This document shows positions 1 to 33,266 of a stretch of 39,358 bases of DNA, in pieces. The notes under the pieces were generated by a model. That model was given only the letters and a program-made list of their open reading frames with translations. It was not told where the DNA came from and did not search any database. This DNA comes from a virus, in IMG/VR virus record IMGVR_UViG_3300037153_000531, positions 1 through 39,358 of that record. One strand, given 5' to 3'. The position numbers and the translations under genes are program-made. Numbering within the stretch: the stretch's first letter is position 1; the number at the start of each line of letters is the position of its first letter.

Positions 1-127
1 CGACGGTGTGCACCGAGCTGGCGGTCATCGCGGCGCGGGAGACGGGGCGGCTGCCGGTGGAGGTGGTGCACCGCGACGAGGAGATCATCCACCCCGGCAC
101 GACCGAGTACCTGGAGCGGGTCGCGGA
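1..127. repeat. Direct terminal repeat, left copy (contig closure)
   Basis: The first 127 bases are identical, base for base, to the last 127 bases (39232-39358). The repeat lies inside an uninterrupted reading frame that continues correctly across the join, so it is best read as the overlap of a circular or circularly permuted assembly and not as a biological terminal repeat. The length of 127 equals a common maximum assembler k-mer, which supports this reading. The non-redundant genome is 39,231 bp. Confidence 0.95.
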
Positions 128-1145
128 ACGCACCGATGAGGTCAAGTTCTGGTGGATTTGCGCGCGGAACCCGGTGATCAACAGCTTCGACAGGTGGCAC
201 CCGTACTTCTGGGTGTTCGATGACCGCCTCGACCCGGACGAGTGGGTGCGGAAGCCGCCGTCGTGGGCGACGTGGATCGATGACATCGACATCCAGAAGC
301 TCACCACCGCGGAGCGGTTCCCGCCCGATCCGGGCAAGGAGGTCCACGGGGTGCTGGGGCTCCGCGCCGACGAGAGCAGGGGCCGGATGCTCGGCACCCA
401 CTCCGCGGGCGGCTACTTCACCGGGGTGGACAAGACCGGCGTGTGCGGCTCCAGGCCGCTGTACGACTGGACCGAGGGCGACGTGTGGAAGGCGATCTTC
501 GAGATGGGCTGGGATTACAACCGGGCATATGACGTTATGCACCGGCTGGGCCTGTCCCGGCGAGAACTGCGGATCGCTCCGCCGACGATGAACCCGGCCG
601 GTGCCGACCACATCCGCGACGTGTGCCGGGTGGCGTGGCCGGGCTGGTGGAACCGGGTGGTGCACCGGCTGCCCTCGGTGCGGACGGTGGCGCTGTACGG
701 GAAGCGGGCGATCGAGGCGACCCGGCTGTACGGCGAGTCGTGGCAGGACTGCTACCTGCGGTCGTGCATCGAGGAGGCGCCGGACTGGATCGCGACGCGG
801 GCGCGCATCCAGATGGAGATCACGGTCGGGGGGCACTCCAAGCACTCGACGGCGCCGTTCCCGCAGACCCGCCGCGGGCACTGCCTCGAATGCGGGGTGC
901 TCGGGTCGTGGGAGACGCTGGTGTCCACGATGTACCTGGGCGACCCGTTCTCGGTGAAGGCGTCGAAGCTGCCCTACGTGGACCCGGTGCAGTTCCGCCC
1001 GGACCTCAAGGGCAAGCCGCAGGGCTACTGGTCCGGGCGGCCGGGCATCCTCCAGGGCGCGAACTGGTCGCTGCCGGTGGAGAAGTGGGAGGCTGGGCTG
1101 GCCAGCGCCGGGGACCCGGCGTGGCGTGGTGTCTACGGATGGTGA
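1..1145 (+). CDS. PAPS-reductase-like PP-loop protein, C-terminal 379+ residues (gene crosses the contig join)
   Basis: This is the larger part of a 419-residue protein whose start lies at 39117 on the other end of the circle. The family is the adenine nucleotide alpha-hydrolase (PP-loop) group related to phosphoadenosine phosphosulfate reductase and to IbrA/DUF3440-type proteins. The PP-loop SGGKDS is encoded just before the join at full-length residues 34-39. This part carries the acidic stretch after the loop (VVHRDEEI), the LGLRADES segment and a late Cys/His cluster (HCLECG) that could bind metal. Family members activate a substrate by adenylation, often in sulfur transfer. The real substrate is unknown. 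The ParB-fold gene follows 8 bases later. That pairing recalls IbrA/IbrB and suggests a joint role in nucleic-acid modification or regulation, which is inference. Confidence 0.85.
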   Translation, partial: TVCTELAVIAARETGRLPVEVVHRDEEIIHPGTTEYLERVAERTDEVKFWWICARNPVINSFDRWHPYFWVFDDRLDPDEWVRKPPSWATWIDDIDIQKLTTAERFPPDPGKEVHGVLGLRADESRGRMLGTHSAGGYFTGVDKTGVCGSRPLYDWTEGDVWKAIFEMGWDYNRAYDVMHRLGLSRRELRIAPPTMNPAGADHIRDVCRVAWPGWWNRVVHRLPSVRTVALYGKRAIEATRLYGESWQDCYLRSCIEEAPDWIATRARIQMEITVGGHSKHSTAPFPQTRRGHCLECGVLGSWETLVSTMYLGDPFSVKASKLPYVDPVQFRPDLKGKPQGYWSGRPGILQGANWSLPVEKWEAGLASAGDPAWRGVYGW

Positions 1146-1152
1146 GGTGAGC

Positions 1153-2001
1153 ATGGCCAGGCAGAAGGGGCAGGCGGCTGTCGAGAAGAAGGCCGAGGCG
1201 CTGGGTGAACTCAAGATCGAGTACATGACGCTCGACCAGATTCACCCGAACGACTACAACCCGAACCGGCAGAACGAGCACGAGTTCGACCTGCTCTGCA
1301 AGTCGATCCAGGAGGACGGCTTCACCCAGCCGGTCATCGTCGCCAACGACAAGACGATCGTGGACGGCGAGCACAGGTGGCGGGCGGCGCACGCGGTCGG
1401 GCTGGAGCGCATCCCGGTGGTCGTCGTGCCGATGGCCGCGCCGCAGGCGAGGATCGCGACGCTGCGGCACAACCGGGCGCGCGGCAGCGAGGACATCGAG
1501 CTGGCCACCGAGGTGCTGCGGGACCTGGAGAAGCTGGGCGCCCTCGACTGGGCCGCCGACTCCCTCGACCTGTCCGACGTGGAGCTGCAACGGCTCCTCG
1601 ATGACATCCCCGCGCCGGAGGCCCTGGCCAGGGCGGAGTTCACCGAGGCGTGGATGCCCGGCGGGAACGCGCCGCCCGAGGGGTTCCAGCCGGTCAACAC
1701 CGAGACGGAGATCGTCGGCGCCACCGACGCCGGTCACGACGCGGCCCGCATCGCGGAGTCGAGGCTGCGGCAGGCCAAGTCGGAGGAGGAGCGGGTCGCG
1801 ATCAAGCGGGACCGGGCCGTGTTCCGCCTCAACCTGGTCTTCACCGGGGATGAGGGCTACGTTGTCCGGCAGGCGCTCGGCAACGCCCCCGCCGCGACGA
1901 TCATGAACTGGTGCCTGTCGTCGCCGGATGGGAAGGCGGCCCAGGAGCGGCTGACGGCGGAGCGGGCGGCGCAAGATGCCGATGGTGCTGCCGTGCCGTG
2001 A
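1153..2001 (+). CDS. ParB/Srx-fold (ParB-like nuclease domain) protein, partner of the PAPS-reductase-like gene
   Basis: The protein has 282 residues. The N-terminal half is a ParB/Srx domain: a strand with YMTLDQIHPNDYNPN (residues 24-38), then QPVIVA, and the nucleotide-binding signature DGEHRW at 71-76. ParB-type domains bind or hydrolyse CTP, and relatives act on nucleic acids or phospho-substrates. The C-terminal half (from about residue 165) is not a classical ParB HTH; it has a charged helix around 195-225 and a small alpha/beta segment. No ParA and no parS-like repeat were seen, so plasmid-type partitioning is unlikely. I chose the ATG at 1153 after GGTGAGGTGAGC; a GTG at 1126 would overlap the upstream gene. 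It lies 8 bases after the PP-loop gene and overlaps the HNH gene by 26 bases, so all three are co-transcribed. Confidence 0.85.
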   Translation: MARQKGQAAVEKKAEALGELKIEYMTLDQIHPNDYNPNRQNEHEFDLLCKSIQEDGFTQPVIVANDKTIVDGEHRWRAAHAVGLERIPVVVVPMAAPQARIATLRHNRARGSEDIELATEVLRDLEKLGALDWAADSLDLSDVELQRLLDDIPAPEALARAEFTEAWMPGGNAPPEGFQPVNTETEIVGATDAGHDAARIAESRLRQAKSEEERVAIKRDRAVFRLNLVFTGDEGYVVRQALGNAPAATIMNWCLSSPDGKAAQERLTAERAAQDADGAAVP

Positions 2002-22547: not shown

Positions 22548-22960
22548 GCTGGTTCCTGTCTGGTTGTTGTTTCCACTGCTAGCCCGACTTCGATCAAGTG
22601 CCTGATGCAGTCGGACCTGGACTCGCCGCGGTCTGCGGCGAGAGCTTCGACGGGGGCGAGCCGCCAGCCGAGGCGGACTACGACCCGGCCGCCGATCTCG
22701 GGTCGCCCGCCGTGGCTGGTTTCCTCCTGCAACGGGATGTCGCGGCGGTCCAGCCAGTTGTGGGCTTCGTCGTCGCTGATGAAGCGGTAGCCGGGGATGC
22801 CTTGCCACAGGCGGAGCACCCATCGGCGGCTGTCGGCCTTGCCGGTGCCGGTGGTGCGGTAGAGCGTCTGCGAGCTGGTGCCGTCGTGCCACTGCTCCGA
22901 CTTCTCGTCATCGAACCAGCCCACGAAGGTGCCGTTCTCGCGGATGTTGATGCGTGCCAT
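22544..22960 (-). CDS. First gene of the leftward block: protein with C-terminal ribbon-helix-helix-like segment (138 aa)
   Basis: The N-terminal half (MARINIRENGTFVGWFDDEKSEQWHDG, then WVLRLWQGIPGYRFISDDEAHNWL) is a small alpha/beta domain. The C-terminal 45 residues, GRVVVRLGWRLAPVEALAAD followed by RGESRSDCIRHLIEVGL, read like a CopG/Arc-type ribbon-helix-helix fold (one strand then two helices). It could be a DNA-binding regulator of its own operon. The ribosome site GAGGAGGTGAG is very strong and lies just behind the 13-bp hairpin in the leader. The promoter is about 140 bases upstream. Confidence 0.65.
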   Translation of the reverse strand: MARINIRENGTFVGWFDDEKSEQWHDGTSSQTLYRTTGTGKADSRRWVLRLWQGIPGYRFISDDEAHNWLDRRDIPLQEETSHGGRPEIGGRVVVRLGWRLAPVEALAADRGESRSDCIRHLIEVGLAVETTTRQEPA

Positions 22961-22979
22961 GTCTCACCTCCTCTCCGGG

Positions 22980-23012
22980 CGGCGGGTGCCCGGCCCGCGC
23001 GGGCACCCGCCG
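22980..23012 (-). promoter_or_regulatory. Perfect 13-bp hairpin in the 5' leader of the leftward block
   Basis: CGGCGGGTGCCCG (22980-22992) pairs with CGGGCACCCGCCG (23000-23012), with a 7-base loop. On the transcript it ends only a few bases before the ribosome site of gene 22544-22960. It can act as a 5' stabiliser, attenuator or protein-binding operator. Two copies of GCGCTCCCCTCC (23029-23040 and 23090-23101) lie upstream in the same leader. Confidence 0.55.
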
Positions 23013-23101
23013 TTTCTCCTGGTGGCGGGCGCTCCCCTCCCGCGTCCGCCGCCCGCGCTGTCCCCCAAGGGCCGTTCCCCTGCGGTCGAGCGCTCCCCTC
23101 C

Positions 23102-23130
23102 AGTCTACCCGACGTTGCGGGGACCGTCAA
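23102..23130 (-). promoter_or_regulatory. Sigma-70-type promoter for the leftward block
   Basis: On the minus strand the -35 element is TTGACG (23125-23130) and the -10 element is TAGACT (23102-23107), separated by the ideal 17 bases. This is among the best-matched promoters in the genome. Its spacer (GTCCCCG...) is shared with the promoter at 33187-33215, which points to common control. Confidence 0.8.
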
Positions 23131-23175
23131 AGTCGGTCTCCCCTCGCTGTCCGGGAGGATCGATCCTGGTGCGCC

Positions 23176-23205
23176 TGGACAGCGCTACGTTAAGCTGGGG
23201 ACAAT
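23176..23205 (+). promoter_or_regulatory. Weak candidate promoter for the ERF block
   Basis: TGGACA (23176-23181) and GACAAT (23200-23205) with an 18-base spacer lie just before gene 23232, back to back with the leftward promoter. The match to the consensus is moderate, and no other candidate is visible in the divergent gap. Confidence 0.4.
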
Positions 23206-23231
23206 ACTCCACTCCGGTAGAGGAGAAGCGC

Positions 23232-24299
23232 ATGGAATGGCGCTGCCCGTCCGGGCACGTCGTCCCCGGTGCGGCCGAGTTCGATATGTGGTGCCCGGAG
23301 TGCGGGGACAAGGTAATCGCGATCAAGGAGGTCAGCGTGACTGACAACAGCGAGATGGTGGCGGCCATGCAAAGCGGCGCCACCATCCCCGTCCCGTTCA
23401 GCGAGACGATGCAGAAGCCGAAGCTGGCCGCGGCGCTCGCCGCGTTCCAGGCCGAGATGCCGAGGGTCGCCAAGAGCCGCAAGGTGGAAATCCAGCCGCG
23501 GGAGGGCCGGGCCTATTCCTACGAGTACGCCGAGCTGGGCGCCGTCAACGACGCGGCGATGCCGCTGCTGGGCAAGCACGGCCTGTCGTTCTCGGCCAAG
23601 CCGACGTGGGTGTACCGCCCTGAGTCCACCCCCGTCTTCTGCCTGATCTACAAGCTGATGCACTCCTCGGGCGAGCAGGAGGTCGGGGTGTGGCCGCTGC
23701 CGTCGCCGGGGAACGCGGGGATGCAGGCGCTCGGGTCAGCGATCACCTACGCCCGCCGGTACGCCTTCCAGGCGGTGACCGGGGTGGCCCCGGCGCCGGG
23801 TGAGGATGACGACGGGGCGGCTGCGGAAGATGCCCCCCGGCCGGATGTGCAGGCGGTGCCGTCCGACCGCAAGGCGGACGACGTGCAGAAGCGGCGGATC
23901 AACAACCGGCTGACCGAGATGGGCATCGCGGACAACGAGGAAACCCGGATGGGCTGGGTGTCGGGGGTGCTGGGCGCCTACTACGAGCACCTGGCCGACC
24001 TGACCCGCGAGGATGCGCTGGCGGCGATCGAGCGGCTGAAGCCAGCGAACCGGCAGGGCCGCAACGTGGTGATCGAGGCGCTGAAGGGCATCGGGCTCAC
24101 CGCGCAGGAAGACGTGATCGCCAAGCTGGCCGAGTGGACCGGCCGGGAGATCGGGTCCACCGGGGACCTGTGCATGGCGGAGGTCGAGATGGTGCACCGC
24201 AAGGCGACGGGGATCAGGGCGGAGATGGACGCGCAGAACCACGCGGCGGAGGGCGAGCGCGCGGAGGAGGCCAGCGATGACAAGCCTGCCGATGCGTGA
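23232..24299 (+). CDS. erf: ERF-family single-strand annealing protein with N-terminal zinc ribbon
   Basis: The full form has 355 residues from ATG 23232 (ribosome site GAGGAGAAG). Residues 1-35 are a zinc ribbon (Cys5, His9, Cys21, Cys24). The ERF domain spans about 52-190 (MQKPKLAAALAAFQAEMP, then YEYAELGAVNDAAMPLLGKHGLSF and ALGSAITYARRYAFQAVTGV). ERF proteins anneal complementary single strands and drive phage recombination and genome circularisation. The C-terminal 160 residues are acidic and helical and may bind SSB or partners. A GTG at 23337 with a perfect ribosome site would give a form without the ribbon. The resolvase-like gene lies in the same operon. Confidence 0.88.
   Translation: MEWRCPSGHVVPGAAEFDMWCPECGDKVIAIKEVSVTDNSEMVAAMQSGATIPVPFSETMQKPKLAAALAAFQAEMPRVAKSRKVEIQPREGRAYSYEYAELGAVNDAAMPLLGKHGLSFSAKPTWVYRPESTPVFCLIYKLMHSSGEQEVGVWPLPSPGNAGMQALGSAITYARRYAFQAVTGVAPAPGEDDDGAAAEDAPRPDVQAVPSDRKADDVQKRRINNRLTEMGIADNEETRMGWVSGVLGAYYEHLADLTREDALAAIERLKPANRQGRNVVIEALKGIGLTAQEDVIAKLAEWTGREIGSTGDLCMAEVEMVHRKATGIRAEMDAQNHAAEGERAEEASDDKPADA
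23337..24299 (+). CDS. Predicted internally initiated ERF protein without zinc ribbon (320 aa)
   Basis: GTG 23337 is in frame with the longer form and is preceded by AAGGAGG with a 5-base spacing, a stronger ribosome site than that of the upstream ATG. The product MTDNSEMVAAMQSG begins where most ERF proteins begin. Either both forms are made, or the ribbon is a short leader reading frame that has been joined in frame. Confidence 0.55.
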   Translation: MTDNSEMVAAMQSGATIPVPFSETMQKPKLAAALAAFQAEMPRVAKSRKVEIQPREGRAYSYEYAELGAVNDAAMPLLGKHGLSFSAKPTWVYRPESTPVFCLIYKLMHSSGEQEVGVWPLPSPGNAGMQALGSAITYARRYAFQAVTGVAPAPGEDDDGAAAEDAPRPDVQAVPSDRKADDVQKRRINNRLTEMGIADNEETRMGWVSGVLGAYYEHLADLTREDALAAIERLKPANRQGRNVVIEALKGIGLTAQEDVIAKLAEWTGREIGSTGDLCMAEVEMVHRKATGIRAEMDAQNHAAEGERAEEASDDKPADA

Positions 24300-24701: not shown

Positions 24702-24898
24702 GCGTGAGCCGGAGCGAGCCGAACATCAGCCTGGCCGACCACATGAAGTGGCTGGAGTCGATCGGGCAGGCGGAGGGCTGCACCTGCGACTTCATCTGGA
24801 AGCCGCGCCTGATGCTGTGGGTGCGGAAGAACACCGACCGGGCCTGCCCGGCGCACGGGGCCGGGCAGTGCCGGGGCAACGGTGACTGCACATGCTGA
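24698..24898 (+). CDS. Small Cys-rich protein (66 aa)
   Basis: GTG 24698 overlaps the previous stop (gtga) and follows GGAGG. The body LADHMKWLESIGQAEGCTCDF is followed by CPAHGAGQCRGNGDCTC, giving six Cys and one His near the C-terminus. Probably zinc-binding. Function unknown. Confidence 0.6.
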   Translation: MSVSRSEPNISLADHMKWLESIGQAEGCTCDFIWKPRLMLWVRKNTDRACPAHGAGQCRGNGDCTC

Positions 24899-25533
24899 GC
24901 GCCGAGCCGGGCCGCATCGCGCGGCTGCCGCACGACAAGCACGGCCGGGCGGTGCCCTGGTTCGTGGCCTGGATCGACGGGGTGCCCGACTTCCGCGTCG
25001 TCAAGCCGGGTGCCATCGCCGCGGCCCAGGCCGGGCGGGGGCTGTGCTGGGTGTGCGGGATCGCGTTCCAGCGGCAGGAGGACCGGGCGTTCGTCATCGG
25101 CCCGATGTGCGCGGTCAACCGGGTGTCCGCCGAGCCTGGCTCGCACCTGGACTGCGCGGTGTTCTCGGCGGTGACCTGCCCGTTCCTGACGACGCCGCAG
25201 ATGATCCGCCGGGAGCGGCGGATGCCGGAAGGGACCGTGCTGCCTGCCGGGGAGATGATCCGCCGCAATCCGGGCGTGGCCCTGGTGTGGGTGACCGGGT
25301 ACAGGTCGTGGTCCACGTCCAGGCCGGAGGGCGGCGGGGTGCTGTTCCGCATCGGTGAGCCGAAGCGGGTCCTGTGGTTCGCGCGGGGCCGGGAGGCGAC
25401 CAGGGCGGAGGTGCTGGAGTCGATCAGCTCCGGACTGCCGATCCTGCGGGACATGGCCGAGTCCGAGGGGCCGGGCGCGGTGGCGGAGCTGGAGCGGATG
25501 CACGCCCGCGCTCTCGGGCTGGTGCCCGCGTGA
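24892..25533 (+). CDS. Conserved-looking hypothetical protein (213 aa)
   Basis: ATG 24892 lies inside the previous gene end. It begins MLSAEPGRIARLPHDKHGRAVPWFVAWIDG and contains a split zinc site: CWVCG (about residue 52), MCAVNR and CAVFSAVTCPF further on. The middle has a beta-rich segment (ALVWVTGYRSWSTSR, GVLFRIGEPKRVLWFARGR). Similar architectures occur in actinophage accessory genes. Its role is unknown; co-transcription with ERF and resolvase hints at DNA metabolism. Confidence 0.7.
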   Translation: MLSAEPGRIARLPHDKHGRAVPWFVAWIDGVPDFRVVKPGAIAAAQAGRGLCWVCGIAFQRQEDRAFVIGPMCAVNRVSAEPGSHLDCAVFSAVTCPFLTTPQMIRRERRMPEGTVLPAGEMIRRNPGVALVWVTGYRSWSTSRPEGGGVLFRIGEPKRVLWFARGREATRAEVLESISSGLPILRDMAESEGPGAVAELERMHARALGLVPA

Positions 25534-26243: not shown

Positions 26244-26268
26244 GCTGTGGACAACGAGAGGAGAACCT

Positions 26269-26511
26269 GTGGACATCCTGGGCAAGCTGCGTGAGGCCAC
26301 CGAGGATTACGAGGCCCGGAAGCGGCAGGCGGACGAGGCGCTGCTGACGCGGAACAGGTACATCGTCGCTGCGGCGCTGGAGACGACGCTGAGCTACGAG
26401 GAGATCGGGCAGGCGGCGGGCATCACGGTGTCCGGCGTGTGGAAAGTCGCGGAGGCGGCGGGGGTCAGCCGCCAGCGTGTGCAGCGGCGCCTCTTGGGGG
26501 ACGGCGTGTGA
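26269..26511 (+). CDS. Helix-turn-helix protein (80 aa)
   Basis: GTG 26269 follows AGAGGAG. After a charged helix (LREATEDYEARKRQADEALL) comes SYEEIGQAAGITVSGVWKV, a good HTH, and then AEAAGVSRQRVQRRL, which may be a second recognition helix. The protein resembles small actinophage regulators of the sigma-region-4-like or AsnC-like HTH type. Its last 47 bases overlap the end of the opposing gene 26465-27025, so the two could interfere through antisense transcription. Confidence 0.7.
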   Translation: MDILGKLREATEDYEARKRQADEALLTRNRYIVAAALETTLSYEEIGQAAGITVSGVWKVAEAAGVSRQRVQRRLLGDGV

Positions 26512-27025
26512 CCTCGAAGTCGGTGAACTGCCTGGTGGTGTAGCGGGCCAGCAGGCGCCACGCCCCGGCCGGGTCTAGCGGGTCGTCGCGGTCCACGGCG
26601 ATGACGGCTTTCATGAACCCGGTCCGGGGCGGGTCCATGCGCGGGTCGGGGCAGCCGATGTGCGGGCTCCAGGTGTCGAGGCAGTACATCGTGCCGGGAT
26701 ACATCGGCGGGTGCCAGTCGTCGTCGTAGGCGGCGAGGCCGCGGATGCGGGTGCCGTCGTTGCGGAGCACGAGCTGGTGGGTGTACCGGGTGTAGGCGGT
26801 GTCGGTGTGCAGGCCGGTGCCGCCGCGGAGCAGCAGGAAGTGCACGCCGTCGCTGTCGTGGCCGAACGACTTGAGGGCACGCGCCTTGCCCGCGCCGAGG
26901 GCGTAGTGCATCGCGTCATCTGAGACATCGGTGGTGATGCCGGGCTGCTGCACGGCGACGAACCAGAGCAGCGGGTTGGGCCGCTCGTTCTCGGTCAGCC
27001 TGTGGTCTTCGCTGATCGTCGGCAT
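26465..27025 (-). CDS. Candidate 2-oxoglutarate/Fe(II)-dependent oxygenase (186 aa)
   Basis: The central part reads VHFLLLRGGTGLHTDTAYTRYTHQ, then MYPGTMYCLDTWSPHIGCPD. His73-x-Asp75 and His122 have the spacing and strand context of the iron-binding HxD...H triad in the double-stranded beta-helix fold, and Arg129 or Arg134 could hold 2-oxoglutarate. Length is small but within the range of compact members. Phage members are known to hydroxylate nucleobases or proteins; the substrate here is unknown. The call rests on motif pattern only. The ribosome site is weak (AGCTGGCGCC). Its 3' end overlaps the opposing HTH gene. Confidence 0.5.
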   Translation of the reverse strand: MPTISEDHRLTENERPNPLLWFVAVQQPGITTDVSDDAMHYALGAGKARALKSFGHDSDGVHFLLLRGGTGLHTDTAYTRYTHQLVLRNDGTRIRGLAAYDDDWHPPMYPGTMYCLDTWSPHIGCPDPRMDPPRTGFMKAVIAVDRDDPLDPAGAWRLLARYTTRQFTDFEVTRRPPRGAAAHAGG

Positions 27026-27034
27026 GGCGCCAGC

Positions 27035-27241
27035 TTAGAACGGCGGCTCGCACTGGCACGAGGGGCCGTGGTGCACGCCGCTGTCGTCTTCGTAGCATCC
27101 CTTGCGGGCGGCGAGGAGGGCGCGGGCGAGGGCTGCGCCGCGGTGGGCTACTTCGGGGTCTTGACGCCGTGGGCTCGGCCAGAGGGACCTGCGGCGAGAG
27201 TAGGGCTGAGCATCGGCGTCCACCCGTTCTGGGCTGCTCAT
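27035..27241 (-). CDS. Small hypothetical protein (68 aa)
   Basis: Begins MSSPERVDADAQPYSRRRSLWPSPRRQDPEVAHRGAALARALLAARKGCYEDD and ends with HHGPSCQCEPPF. A basic N-terminal half, one amphipathic helix and a C-terminal Cys/His cluster (one Cys, then CQC) are visible. It is the first gene after the gene-free region. No strong ribosome site. Function unknown. Confidence 0.5.
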   Translation of the reverse strand: MSSPERVDADAQPYSRRRSLWPSPRRQDPEVAHRGAALARALLAARKGCYEDDSGVHHGPSCQCEPPF

Positions 27242-27698
27242 ACGCCCAGTATGACGGGCTTTGGTTACAGCTAGTGGCCACGCGGGTGACGGTACGGTCT
27301 GTGCTTTGGTTGCTCACCTTCACCGGGAGTTGTAGCGGTGAGGGTGGTCAGCCCAAGTTCCTCGGTGGCCGGTGGGTTCCGCCGAAGGCGGGTTCCGCCG
27401 GGCCGCGCCCTTGACCTGGCCTGCATGGGTGCAGGCCGTAAGTTGTGGCTAATCTGCCGCGACAGCGGCAGGTTAGAGCAAGGAACCGCGCCACATTGCG
27501 CATCACGCCGGGGATTCGCCATTCTCAGCAGTGGCCCACACGCCGCGTGTTCGAGCATAGGAGACTAGCTCCTGGTGGTATTTCCCACCGGAGTTGAGTT
27601 ATGCTCTACCTGATATCTGGTACCGGCAGACTATACCGGGCAGGCCCGCCGGGCAAGGGGTCGCGACAGCACCCTTGTTGGCCGTCCGGCTCTTTCGG
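27242..27698. other. Gene-free structured region (457 bp), candidate ncRNA or replication/control region
   Basis: No supported gene on either strand. It holds two 9-base repeats of GCTTTGGTT (27258-27266, 27303-27311) and two 11-base repeats of GGGTTCCGCCG (27374-27384, 27390-27400). There is an 8-bp hairpin (27418-27425 with 27430-27437), a 12-bp hairpin with one wobble (27449-27460 with 27465-27476) and a 9-bp hairpin with one bulge (27569-27578 with 27585-27593). A minus-strand TATAGT, with a poorly spaced TTGCCC, near 27626-27655 could start a leftward RNA through all of them. Confidence 0.55.
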
Positions 27699-27737
27699 CC
27701 CCGGCCCCGCCGTAGCCCCCCCGCGGCGGGGCCGGGG
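27699..27737 (-). terminator. Strong terminator hairpin after the long leftward block
   Basis: A perfect 14-bp stem (27699-27712 with 27724-27737, 11-base loop) lies one base beyond the stop codon of gene 27739-27882. It has no U-tract but is nearly all G/C. It closes the leftward block that begins near 33098. Confidence 0.75.
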
Positions 27738-27738
27738 A

Positions 27739-27882
27739 TTACTCCCCGATCGTGGTCACCCCGACCTGGCACGTCTCGCACCAGAGCATGTAGCCGCCGA
27801 ACACCCTGATCTCGCGCAGGTCGTGGTAGCGGTGCAGCCGCCAGAACCCGAGCACCCGGCGCAGCTCACGGAACAGGCCCAA
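27739..27882 (-). CDS. Small protein with TTG start (47 aa)
   Basis: The TTG at 27882 follows GGAGGAGGGCC. The protein MGLFRELRRVLGFWRLHRYHDLREIRVFGGYMLWCETC ends GVTTIGE. It is basic with an amphipathic helix and one CxxC pair near the end. It overlaps the upstream gene by 17 bases. Last gene before the 14-bp terminator. Function unknown. Confidence 0.5.
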   Translation of the reverse strand: MGLFRELRRVLGFWRLHRYHDLREIRVFGGYMLWCETCQVGVTTIGE

Positions 27883-28048
27883 GGCCCTCCTCCAGCTTCG
27901 CCCTGAGCTGAGGCCAGAGCCGCGCCGCCTGGTCCGGGCTCAGGTAGACCCGCTTGGTGCGCTTCGCCCGCCCGATCATGACGACGAGCCACTGGCGCGT
28001 GTCGTCGGACCACTCCACGACCACCTGGCCGTACTCGGGCTCGCTCAT
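27866..28048 (-). CDS. Small hypothetical protein (60 aa)
   Basis: The sequence MSEPEYGQVVVEWSDDTRQWLVVMIGRAKRTKRVYLS has a three-stranded beta pattern, followed by a helix (PDQAARLWPQLRAKLEEGL). This compact beta-beta-beta-alpha order suggests a small folded domain, perhaps nucleic-acid binding given its basic loop. The ATG overlaps the upstream stop (atga). Function unknown. Confidence 0.6.
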   Translation of the reverse strand: MSEPEYGQVVVEWSDDTRQWLVVMIGRAKRTKRVYLSPDQAARLWPQLRAKLEEGLGPVP

Positions 28049-28743
28049 ATCGGGTCCAGCGGCACGTCGGCCATCTCCTCCAGCCCGGCTTCGGCCGCCA
28101 CCCCGTCCTGCCAGGTGAAGAACCGCACCAGCTTGACCTTCGGCACCCGGTAGGCGGGCATCATCCCGTCATCGAGGACCAGGTTCACCATCTGGTAGTC
28201 CGCCGCGGTGACCACGACGGCGGGCCGCTTGGCCTGGGTCCGCCCGACTGTGTGGATGAACTCCCGGTCCGCCGCCATCATCACGTCGTTGTCGATGATC
28301 CGGCGACGCGGCCACGACTCGTCATGCAAGAAGGGGCACAGTCCGCCGATCGCGATCTCGATGCACCGCTCGTGCACCGGGGCCTCGATGAACAGCCCGT
28401 CCGGCGCGATCGACGCCACGTCGCCGTACAGGGCGACATCGCCGGTCATCCGCTTCCCGCACATCGCGCACACCCTGCGCTCCCAGCAGAACCGGGCGCG
28501 GCGGTAGTCGAGCACCCCGAAGTTGGCTGGCTTCCGGCCGCCGAACTGCTCCACGATGAACGGGATGGGCAGGTTCCGGCGCGTGTCGATCGGCAGGTGC
28601 CGCACCTCCTCGGGCCACTTGGCCGCTTCCAGGGCTTGCAGCGTCTCGCGGGCCTTGGCCTCCTCGCGCTGGACCTGGGCCAGGCGGCGGTGCTCCCGCG
28701 CGACCCGCCCGGACGGGCCTTTCCTGCTACGTCGCTTCGGCAT
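28045..28743 (-). CDS. Conserved-looking hypothetical protein with HNH-like zinc core (232 aa)
   Basis: A basic N-terminus (MPKRRSRKGPSGRVAREHRRL) and coiled segment precede the central CAMCGKRMTGDVALYGD and VHERCIEIAIGGLCPF. The C-x2-C then H-x2-C pattern forms one zinc site of the kind found in treble-clef or HNH-like folds, but no HNH catalytic triad is clear. The C-terminal third (RTQAKRPAVVVTAADYQMVNL) is alpha/beta. This type of protein is frequent in actinophages and actinobacterial genomes, with no known role. Confidence 0.65.
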   Translation of the reverse strand: MPKRRSRKGPSGRVAREHRRLAQVQREEAKARETLQALEAAKWPEEVRHLPIDTRRNLPIPFIVEQFGGRKPANFGVLDYRRARFCWERRVCAMCGKRMTGDVALYGDVASIAPDGLFIEAPVHERCIEIAIGGLCPFLHDESWPRRRIIDNDVMMAADREFIHTVGRTQAKRPAVVVTAADYQMVNLVLDDGMMPAYRVPKVKLVRFFTWQDGVAAEAGLEEMADVPLDPI

Positions 28744-29296: not shown

Positions 29297-30025
29297 TCAG
29301 TGCTGCCAGGGGTCGTCCGGGTCGCCGTCCTGGAGCGGCGGCAGGCCGTCCGCCGCGCGCCGGGCGTTGGTTTCCCGCCGGGCTTCGTCCTTGATCTCCG
29401 CGTTCAGGCGGTCTTCCCAGTCAGCGGGCCGGTCCCGCAGCTCCGCTTCGGCCTGCAAGATACGCAACCGGCGCTGCTCGTAGGTGAGCCCGTCTTCGTC
29501 TGCGCCCTCGTACCAGCCGGGCGGCAGGTCGCGGGATTCGGGGTGCGCCATCAGGTATTCCTCCTCGTCTTCGGGTGGGGATTCGGGGTGTGCCATGTGC
29601 TCGTACGCCTGCCGGTCCTCCTCGCTCATCGGCGCGGGCTGCGGCGGGTAGAACTCGTGCCACAGCCCGGCGGCTGGCAGCTCCGGCTCGCTGTCGGGGG
29701 TCAGGTCAGCCGAGTGCGGGACGAGCCCCCGTTCGGCTGCCGCGTTCCACGCGGCCAGGTATCCGCCGATCAGGTTGCGGCTGATCCTGGCTTCCTGGGC
29801 GAACGCGCTCATCGGGATCTTCTGCTGCCTGTCGCCGGTCACTTCCGCGCCGCTGTCGCCGGTCACTTTTGCACTGTCAGTGCAAAAGTTGCTGTCTAGA
29901 TCGGACCGCCTCCCCTGCCCGGCGCGTGGCTGGACGCAGCACGCCACGTCCGCAGCCAGAGACCAATCGCCATGTGCCACACCACGGCCAAAGTGCCTTG
30001 CACGAGCCCTCGCCTTGTCCTCCAT
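29297..30025 (-). CDS. Hypothetical protein with N-terminal HTH-like segment (242 aa)
   Basis: ATG 30025 is preceded by AAAGGAACCAGCA. Residues 1-60 are low-complexity and basic; at about 70-105 IPMSAFAQEARISRNLIGGYLAAWNAAAERG reads as a helix-turn-helix. A repeated element HMAHPESPPEDEEEYLMAHPES (two MAHPES copies) sits in an acidic middle. The C-terminal 70 residues are charged helices (RLRILQAEAELRDRPADW). Its first 130 bases overlap the end of gene 29896-30528 in another frame, an unusual length of overlap. Possibly a regulator. Confidence 0.6.
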   Translation of the reverse strand: MEDKARARARHFGRGVAHGDWSLAADVACCVQPRAGQGRRSDLDSNFCTDSAKVTGDSGAEVTGDRQQKIPMSAFAQEARISRNLIGGYLAAWNAAAERGLVPHSADLTPDSEPELPAAGLWHEFYPPQPAPMSEEDRQAYEHMAHPESPPEDEEEYLMAHPESRDLPPGWYEGADEDGLTYEQRRLRILQAEAELRDRPADWEDRLNAEIKDEARRETNARRAADGLPPLQDGDPDDPWQH

Positions 30026-31850: not shown

Positions 31851-32360
31851 CTACAGGCCGACCTTGCTGGCGGCGTAGCTCGCCTGGGCGTAGGTGAACT
31901 TCTCGAACTGGAGCTGGTCGATCAGGCTGCCGCGGGAGAACCCGCCCATGTCCATGTACGACTTGGCGGAATCGACGGCCTGCGCGTTCCAGTCGGCGCC
32001 CGAGTGGTCCGCCGCCCATTCGGCGTCCGCCTGGGAGAACTTCTCGAACTTGAGCTGGCTGACCAGGCCGTCGTGGGAGAAGCCGCCCATGTCCAGGTAG
32101 GACTGGGCGCTGTCGAGGGCCTGCTGCTCGCTGACCGTGATCTGCGGCGCCTTGTGGGTGGGAGGCGCCACCGCCTTGTGGGTGGCGGGCGCAGCCGCCT
32201 TGTGGCTGGCGGGCGCCTGGGTGGCGGGCGCCGCCGGGGCCGAGTGGGTGACCTTCGGCGCGACCGGGGTCGCGTGGCCGCTGGCCATCGCGGTGCTGCA
32301 CCCGGCGATGCCGCCCGCAATGCACAGGCTGGCCACGGTGAACTTGACTGACTTACGCAT
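31851..32360 (-). CDS. ltp: Ltp-type superinfection-exclusion lipoprotein
   Basis: The protein has 169 residues. Signal peptide MRKSVKFTVASLCIAGGIAGC ends in a lipobox whose Cys21 would be lipidated, so the protein sits on the outer face of the membrane. A Pro/Ala/Thr/Lys linker (30-72) contains repeated THKA units. Two Ltp repeats follow: about 81-123 and 128-169, each with DSAxSYxDMGGFS and QLxFEKF. This is the host-cell-surface-exposed lipoprotein (Ltp) domain, known to block DNA entry of related phages by interfering with tape-measure-mediated injection. Its own terminator hairpins on both sides suggest independent control. In a virulent phage it would protect the infected cell from a second phage. 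Confidence 0.85.
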   Translation of the reverse strand: MRKSVKFTVASLCIAGGIAGCSTAMASGHATPVAPKVTHSAPAAPATQAPASHKAAAPATHKAVAPPTHKAPQITVSEQQALDSAQSYLDMGGFSHDGLVSQLKFEKFSQADAEWAADHSGADWNAQAVDSAKSYMDMGGFSRGSLIDQLQFEKFTYAQASYAASKVGL

Positions 32361-33098: not shown

Positions 33099-33173
33099 GT
33101 TGCCGGGCCTCCTTCTGATATCGGGCCGTTCGACCCTGGTCCATCGTCACCCCGTGGTCGAGGTGATGACCTC

Positions 33174-33203
33174 AGTCTACACGACGTTGACGGTCCCCGT
33201 CAA
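33174..33203 (-). promoter_or_regulatory. Leftward promoter of the long leftward block
   Basis: On the minus strand, -35 TTGACG (33198-33203) and -10 TAGACT (33174-33179) with an 18-base spacer. The RNA would start near 33167, giving a leader of about 70 bases to gene 32457-33098. It overlaps the rightward promoter, so RNA polymerase probably cannot hold both at once. Confidence 0.75.
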
Positions 33204-33215
33204 GTCTGGTAGACT
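33187..33215 (+). promoter_or_regulatory. Rightward promoter of the ligase block
   Basis: The -35 is TTGACG (33187-33192) and the -10 is TAGACT (33210-33215) with the optimal 17-base spacer. The RNA would start near 33222. An in-frame ATG at 33222 could even be read leaderless, but the ATG at 33267 has a strong ribosome site. Confidence 0.78.
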
Positions 33216-33266
33216 GAGGTCATGAGATCGACCCCAGTCGAAGGGCTGGGAGGGAGGAGGGCCAAG

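What the first reader, a model, noticed from the sequence alone, without database searches (positions are those of the whole stretch)
27242..27698. 457-bp gene-free region packed with hairpins and repeats
In a genome otherwise packed with overlapping genes, this region has no gene but three stem-loops (8, 12 and 9 bp), two repeat families and a possible minus-strand TATAGT. It could be a noncoding RNA, a replication origin or a regulatory leader.
Basis: partly seen in the sequence, partly recalled or inferred. Interest (0 to 1): 0.7.

Follow-up and report, generated by a model that had tools for sequence, protein, structure and literature searches.

The report
Orphan folded RNA in soil phage
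The largest gap between genes in this new actinobacterial phage looks like the template of a roughly 370-letter folded RNA with no known relative, a real but so far untested candidate rather than a proven new RNA.

Summary
The window is a complete actinophage genome, and 27242-27738 (497 bp) is its largest gap between called genes, with no coding signal in any of six frames and no protein-family match. The gap folds far better than chance. As + strand RNA the core 27282-27649 has z = -6.3, against -4.25 for the - strand. The + preference exceeds composition (0 of 80 shuffles). A helix at 27282-27302/27626-27649 closes a domain of hairpins, and a G+C-rich hairpin at 27699-27737 lies between it and the converging - strand genes. 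Among 56 long gaps in 63 phage sequences it ranks second. The repeat families are no more than chance. The minus-strand TATAGT exists but has a poor promoter context.

Best explanation: a rightward structured noncoding RNA of 370-590 nt. Not shown: transcription, a + strand promoter, covariation. No relative was found in Rfam, cultured phages, plasmids, two IMG/VR pattern scans, relatives' contigs or several hundred actinobacterial genomes, so covariation could not be tested. A structured leader for the leftward genes and a DNA element remain live rivals. It resembles ROOL, GOLLD and the L5/D29 early RNA in kind, but is not a member of any by the tests possible here.

The parts
27242..27738 (.). 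gene-free region (largest intergenic gap of the genome)
   Evidence: gene picking by codon-position GC; negative coding scores in all frames
27282..27649 (+). core structured domain, candidate noncoding RNA
   Evidence: MFE -195.6 kcal/mol, z -6.3, 0 of 200 shuffles; - strand z -4.25; strand preference 0 of 80 shuffles
27282..27302 (+). 5' strand of closing helix P1
   Evidence: pairs with 27626-27649, mean pair probability about 0.9; this helix is not significant by a simple ungapped score (36 of 400 shuffles)
27626..27649 (+). 3' strand of closing helix P1
   Evidence: as above
27303..27358 (+). long hairpin P2 (21 pairs, contains the 12-bp stem 27314-27347)
   Evidence: pair probability 0.93
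27369..27401 (+). hairpin that contains the two GGTGGGTTCCGCCG-like repeats
   Evidence: 14 pairs, probability 0.95; repeat D2
27417..27438 (+).
   Evidence: probability 0.93
27449..27476 (+).
   Evidence: probability 0.99 for 27450-27475
27553..27606 (+). stem GAGCATAG/TTATGCTC with inner hairpin 27566-27596
   Evidence: probabilities 0.86 and 0.93
27592..27623 (.). AT-richest 30-mer stretch of the genome (60% AT)
27630..27656 (-). weak promoter-like pair TTGCCC-15-TATAGT
   Evidence: one of 6 genome-wide hits of a loose scan; poor spacing; not found by the stricter scan
27699..27737 (.). G+C-rich hairpin (14-15 bp), possible shared terminator; no T run
   Evidence: inverted repeat I4, 100% complementary; probability 0.99; terminator role inferred
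27137..27160 (+). possible outer strand P0 pairing with 27703-27727, in competition with hairpin 27699-27737
   Evidence: probability 0.96-0.97 when included; -338.1 against -332.4 kcal/mol; not significant on its own (120 of 400 shuffles)
27223..27258 (.). 12-bp inverted repeat around the ATG of ORF 27035-27241 (the start codon falls in the loop)
   Evidence: helices 27223-27234/27244-27258, probability 0.93-0.98
27035..27241 (-). doubtful 68-aa ORF upstream of gene 26465-27025
   Evidence: coding score -18.9; no family match
26465..27025 (-). leftward gene of unknown function, 186 aa
   Evidence: coding score +30.5; no family match
27739..28743 (-). leftward genes 28045-28743, 27866-28048 and 27739-27882, which end facing the candidate RNA
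   Evidence: positive coding scores

Best explanation
The gap is the template of a structured noncoding RNA read rightward (+ strand). Its core (27282-27649, about 370 nt) is one domain, closed by a long-range helix and filled with hairpins; with outer sequence it may reach about 590 nt. It would end at the G+C-rich hairpin 27699-27737, which also stops the leftward genes coming the other way. Most likely mechanism: a stable untranslated phage RNA that acts in trans during infection by binding a host or phage protein or RNA, comparable to the abundant ORF-less RNAs of L5/D29. Shown: the excess structure, its strand preference and the lack of coding signal. Inferred: that it is transcribed, where it starts and stops, and any function.
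For: + strand folding beyond dinucleotide shuffles: 27242-27740 z -6.55, 0 of 100; core z -6.3, 0 of 200; 27137-27727 z -6.6, 0 of 120. + over - preference -31.5 kcal/mol against -17.4 +/- 5.9 in shuffles, 0 of 80. Third of 784 windows of 200 nt, second of 260 windows of 368 nt, second of 56 long gaps in 63 phage sequences. Closing helix and hairpins with pair probabilities about 0.9. Low GC for this genome: 63.2% against 70.4%, lowest 0.44% of windows. No coding signal. Precedents of long ORF-less RNAs in phages L5/D29 and ICP1 (passages).
Against: No relative found, so no covariation. No + strand promoter in or near the gap in the loose or strict scan. The end hairpin has no T run and was not called a terminator. 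The - strand also folds beyond shuffles (z -4.25), as palindromic DNA would. P1 alone is not significant in a simple helix test (36 of 400). A single-sequence fold is not proof of an RNA.
Confidence: 0.47

Rival explanations
1. A structured 5' leader on the - strand for the leftward genes 27241-26465: read-through or a weak promoter near 27630 makes a long untranslated leader whose hairpins, including one with the start codon in its loop, control termination or translation.
For: The leftward gene block runs up to the region; the - strand fold is also better than shuffles (z -4.25 core, -3.6 whole); the hairpin 27223-27258 holds the ATG of ORF 27035-27241 in its loop; there is a TATAGT with TTGCCC at 15 nt.
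Against: The + strand folds clearly better than composition predicts and the - strand fold has only 5 G-U pairs of 120, below its shuffles (10.2); the first ORF it would lead, 27035-27241, has a negative coding score; the promoter-like pair is poor; no riboswitch or leader family in Rfam.
Confidence: 0.23
2. A DNA element: replication origin, recombination or protein-binding site whose inverted repeats work as DNA.
For: AT-richest 30-mer of the genome is here; many inverted repeats, some on both strands; the strand of the genes changes nearby and the GC skew changes sign at about 28 kb.
Against: No iterons or tandem repeats; no DnaA-box match with up to one mismatch inside the region (nearest at 26246-26276); the skew change follows the change of coding strand; the strand asymmetry of the fold is not expected of a DNA site; no integrase was recognised among the proteins scanned.
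Confidence: 0.13
3. A non-functional remnant or recently acquired spacer whose structure is left from something else or is partly chance.
For: No relative anywhere searched; composition differs from the genome; the neighbouring genes also have few relatives.
Against: Structure this far beyond shuffles in the one large gap of a compact genome is unlikely to persist unselected; 0 of 200 shuffles for the core.
Confidence: 0.14

Closest known systems
ROOL and GOLLD RNAs (large ornate phage and prophage RNAs)
   Same: Long, heavily structured, ORF-less stretch in a phage; function of those RNAs is also unknown (passages of PMC12286853).
   Different: No match to any Rfam family; no tRNA gene in this genome, whereas ROOL and GOLLD are often near tRNA islands; smaller than GOLLD; multimer formation untested.
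Abundant ORF-less early RNA of mycobacteriophages L5, D29 and StarStuff
   Same: About 500-bp transcribed region without conserved ORF in an actinobacterial phage (passages of PMC5712189).
   Different: No DNA similarity to any cultured phage record; it lies between leftward genes, not at a genome end behind a known early promoter; no transcript data here.
ICP1 abundant ncRNA (about 800 bp)
   Same: Large ORF-less region with a dominant transcript in a phage without tRNAs (passages of PMC7567579).
   Different: Different host group; similarity of structure not compared.

Membership tests
ROOL / GOLLD | match to the Rfam covariance model | tested here: not met
   no family at gathering score in the whole window and none of these at E up to 5 in 27100-27800
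ROOL / GOLLD | position near a tRNA island (usual, not universal) | tested here: not met
   no tRNA gene in the genome
ROOL / GOLLD | large, elaborate secondary structure | tested here: inconclusive
   predicted from one sequence, z -6.3 to -6.6; no covariation possible
ROOL / GOLLD | RNA-only homo-oligomeric cage | not testable with these tools
   needs the RNA
L5/D29-type early phage RNA | sequence relatedness to the Cluster A region | tested here: not met
   no blastn match among 50,697 phage records
L5/D29-type early phage RNA | ORF-less region of about 500 bp | tested here: met
   497 bp without coding signal
L5/D29-type early phage RNA | very abundant transcript from a strong early promoter | not testable with these tools
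   no RNA-seq; no + strand promoter recognised at the gap
phage replication origin | iterons or initiator boxes | tested here: not met
   no tandem repeats, two-copy repeats only, no DnaA-like box in the region
phage replication origin | AT-rich unwinding stretch | tested here: met
   AT-richest 30-mer of the genome at 27592-27623
riboswitch or known leader RNA | match to a known family | tested here: not met

The most novel reading that the evidence does not exclude
The region encodes the first known member of a new class of large structured phage RNA in actinobacterial phages, with its own closed domain architecture, that acts in trans during infection.
Probability: 0.3. Interest if true: 0.7.

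Novelty: new member of a known kind. Interest (0 to 1): 0.42.

Why it matters
Large structured RNAs of phages are few and their jobs are unknown. A compact example in a 39-kb genome, with a defined closed domain, would be easy to make, probe and solve, and would add a case outside the tRNA-island setting. If it is instead a leader or an origin it is of ordinary interest.

Tried and rejected
Relatives by protein in IMG/VR: genes 28045-28743, 26465-27025 and 22878-24299 gave none. Terminase gave 14 loci, tape measure 19, gene 24892-25533 30. None holds the region by blastn with short words, R1 or R2. Terminase in genome contigs: 80 best loci kept of 245, best Actinomadura at 42% (53% over a segment in another Actinomadura), so the host is probably an actinobacterium but is not established.

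DNA search of Actinomadura's order: 0 of 345 genomes at E 1e-5; of three chosen genomes 1 of 3 had a 24-nt G+C-rich match at E 0.003, rejected. Relatives' records: 19 of 32 had matches at E up to 1, best 0.0043, none over about 43 nt, rejected.

R1 (27303-27477, built from two copies of one sequence): 8 of 345 genomes at E up to 0.1 and 7 of 394. The best, three places in genome G377 (E 2.5e-7 to 2.9e-5), I rejected: they match mainly through the P2 hairpin, and in two of the three loci on both strands of a palindrome. That is a judgement, not a proof. A partial match in another genome (E 8.9e-4) covers model positions 59-104 only and was rejected. R2 (27536-27625): 0 of 342 genomes.

DNA patterns in IMG/VR: a 15-mer gave 16 stretches, none with flanking similarity.

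Outer helix P0 was first taken as strong because of its pair probability; it failed a shuffle test of its own and is kept only as an alternative. Weak Rfam hits (worm snoRNA, miRNA, frameshift element, plant SRP) were rejected as chance, all far below gathering scores.

Literature: searches; none listed this region or phage. PMC5712189, PMC12286853 and PMC7567579 were seen as passages; the rest as search listings only.

Full report
What the window is. The window is a complete phage genome: contig L002 runs from window 35297 through the end and on to 6957, with 127 bases shared by both ends. It has terminase, portal, major head protein, tape measure, endolysin and Erf-like genes, 70.4% GC, no tRNA and no Rfam match. 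It has no DNA match among cultured phages in the two stretches searched. Of 14 terminase relatives in IMG/VR, 9 are at 67-100% identity, but they are fragments and none covers the region.

The gap. Between gene 27739-27882 and ORF 27035-27241 lie 497 bases without a called gene. Codon-usage scores trained on 19 genes of this genome are negative for all ORFs tested there, and the best 40-codon stretch in each of the six frames is negative. The same score is negative for the neighbouring ORF 27035-27241 (-18.9; both halves negative), whereas 26465-27025 and the three genes on the other side are positive. The gap is also low in GC for this genome, among the lowest 0.44% of 457-base windows.

Is the structure more than chance? 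Yes. On the + strand 27242-27740 has z -6.55 (0 of 100 shuffles), the core 27282-27649 z -6.3 (0 of 200) and on the - strand -4.25 (0 of 200). In a genome scan 27301-27500 + is third of 784 windows; in 368-base windows it is second of 260. As a control, gaps of 250-900 bases in 63 phage sequences (56 gaps, 112 folds; gaps at contig ends left out and long gaps cut to 560 bases) were folded: the region is second only to a palindrome-like gap in L067. Individual stems also exceed chance: two stems of 12 bp or more with G-T allowed, 0 of 300 shuffles.

Which strand? A hairpin in DNA folds on both strands; an RNA shows G-U pairs on its own strand that become A-C on the other. The + fold of the core has 21 G-U pairs of 131 (shuffles 19.2), the - fold 5 of 120 (shuffles 10.2). 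The energy difference between the strands is -31.5 kcal/mol against -17.4 +/- 5.9 in shuffles, reached by 0 of 80. This favours the + strand beyond composition.

Architecture. A helix 27282-27302/27626-27649 closes the domain (pair probability about 0.9). Inside are P2 27303-27358, hairpins 27369-27401, 27417-27438 and 27449-27476, and a longer stem 27553-27606, all at 0.86-0.99; the pairing 27359-27367/27506-27514 is uncertain at about 0.5. P1 on its own is not significant in an ungapped helix test (36 of 400). Downstream, 27699-27737 is a perfect G+C-rich inverted repeat that could stop transcription from both sides; it has no T run, so the consensus scan did not call it. With more upstream sequence, 27137-27160 can pair with 27703-27727 instead; the two alternatives differ by 5.7 kcal/mol of 338, and the outer helix is not significant alone.

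Transcription signals. The phage's own strong promoter-like sites are TTGACG-17/18-TAGACT, at 33174-33215 in both directions and at 23130-23102 (-). None lies in or near the gap. The only candidate there is TTGCCC-15-TATAGT on the - strand. So a + transcript would need an unrecognised promoter or read-through from the rightward genes up to 26511. This is the main weakness of the RNA reading.

Relatives. None was found in Rfam, 50,697 phage records, 72,556 plasmid records, relatives' records, 345 genomes by DNA, 345 and 394 genomes by model R1, 342 by model R2 or in two IMG/VR pattern scans. Models made from one sequence have limited reach, the genome scans scored only a few candidates per genome, and the close relatives are fragments, so absence is not established.

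Verdict. A structured + strand noncoding RNA is the best reading at about 0.47. A - strand leader (0.23), a DNA element (0.13) and a remnant (0.14) are the rivals. The kind is known: long ORF-less RNAs in L5/D29 (passages), ICP1, ROOL and GOLLD. This one is not a member of those families by the tests made. Searching single bacterial genomes for long intergenic regions of unusual GC is an established route to structured RNAs (listing and abstract starts only).

Noticed in passing
window 33164-33225: Long inverted repeat that holds two overlapping divergent promoter-like sites (TTGACG-17/18-TAGACT), with an ATG 6 bases after the rightward -10 that suggests leaderless mRNA; windows there fold with z -6.0 and -6.6. 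A third copy of the promoter is at 23130-23102 (-).
   Followed up: partly
window 29858-29890: Near-perfect 23-base palindrome CTTTTGCACTG/TCAGTGCAAAAG beside two copies of a CGCCGGTCAC repeat, upstream of an internal start of ORF 29297-30025; looks like an operator.
   Followed up: no
window 26246-26276: An exact TTGTCCACA (recalled actinobacterial DnaA box) and a one-mismatch copy 22 bases on, inside a rightward ORF; 7 matches genome-wide against 4.2 expected.
   Followed up: no
window 6-2001: A PAPS-reductase-like gene next to a ParB-like gene that also matches a methyltransferase family, a pairing that recalls DNA modification modules.
   Followed up: no
window 31851-32360: Lipoprotein with Ltp repeats, PHROGs 'superinfection exclusion'.
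   Followed up: no
window 24892-25533 and 28045-28743: The two proteins hit the same places in three IMG/VR loci (L054, L065, L066), so they may be distant relatives; the second also resembles Rhizobium phage proteins at about 30%.
   Followed up: no
L067 7735-8024: Gap that folds almost equally on both strands (z -8.7 and -8.3), as a long palindrome would.
   Followed up: no
L156, L164, L165: Repeated palindromes with CACCCTCACCG arms at three places of one unnamed actinobacterial genome, possibly an extragenic repeat family.
   Followed up: partly
window ends (L002): The contig ends share 127 bases and L002 bridges them, so the genome is complete.
   Followed up: yes
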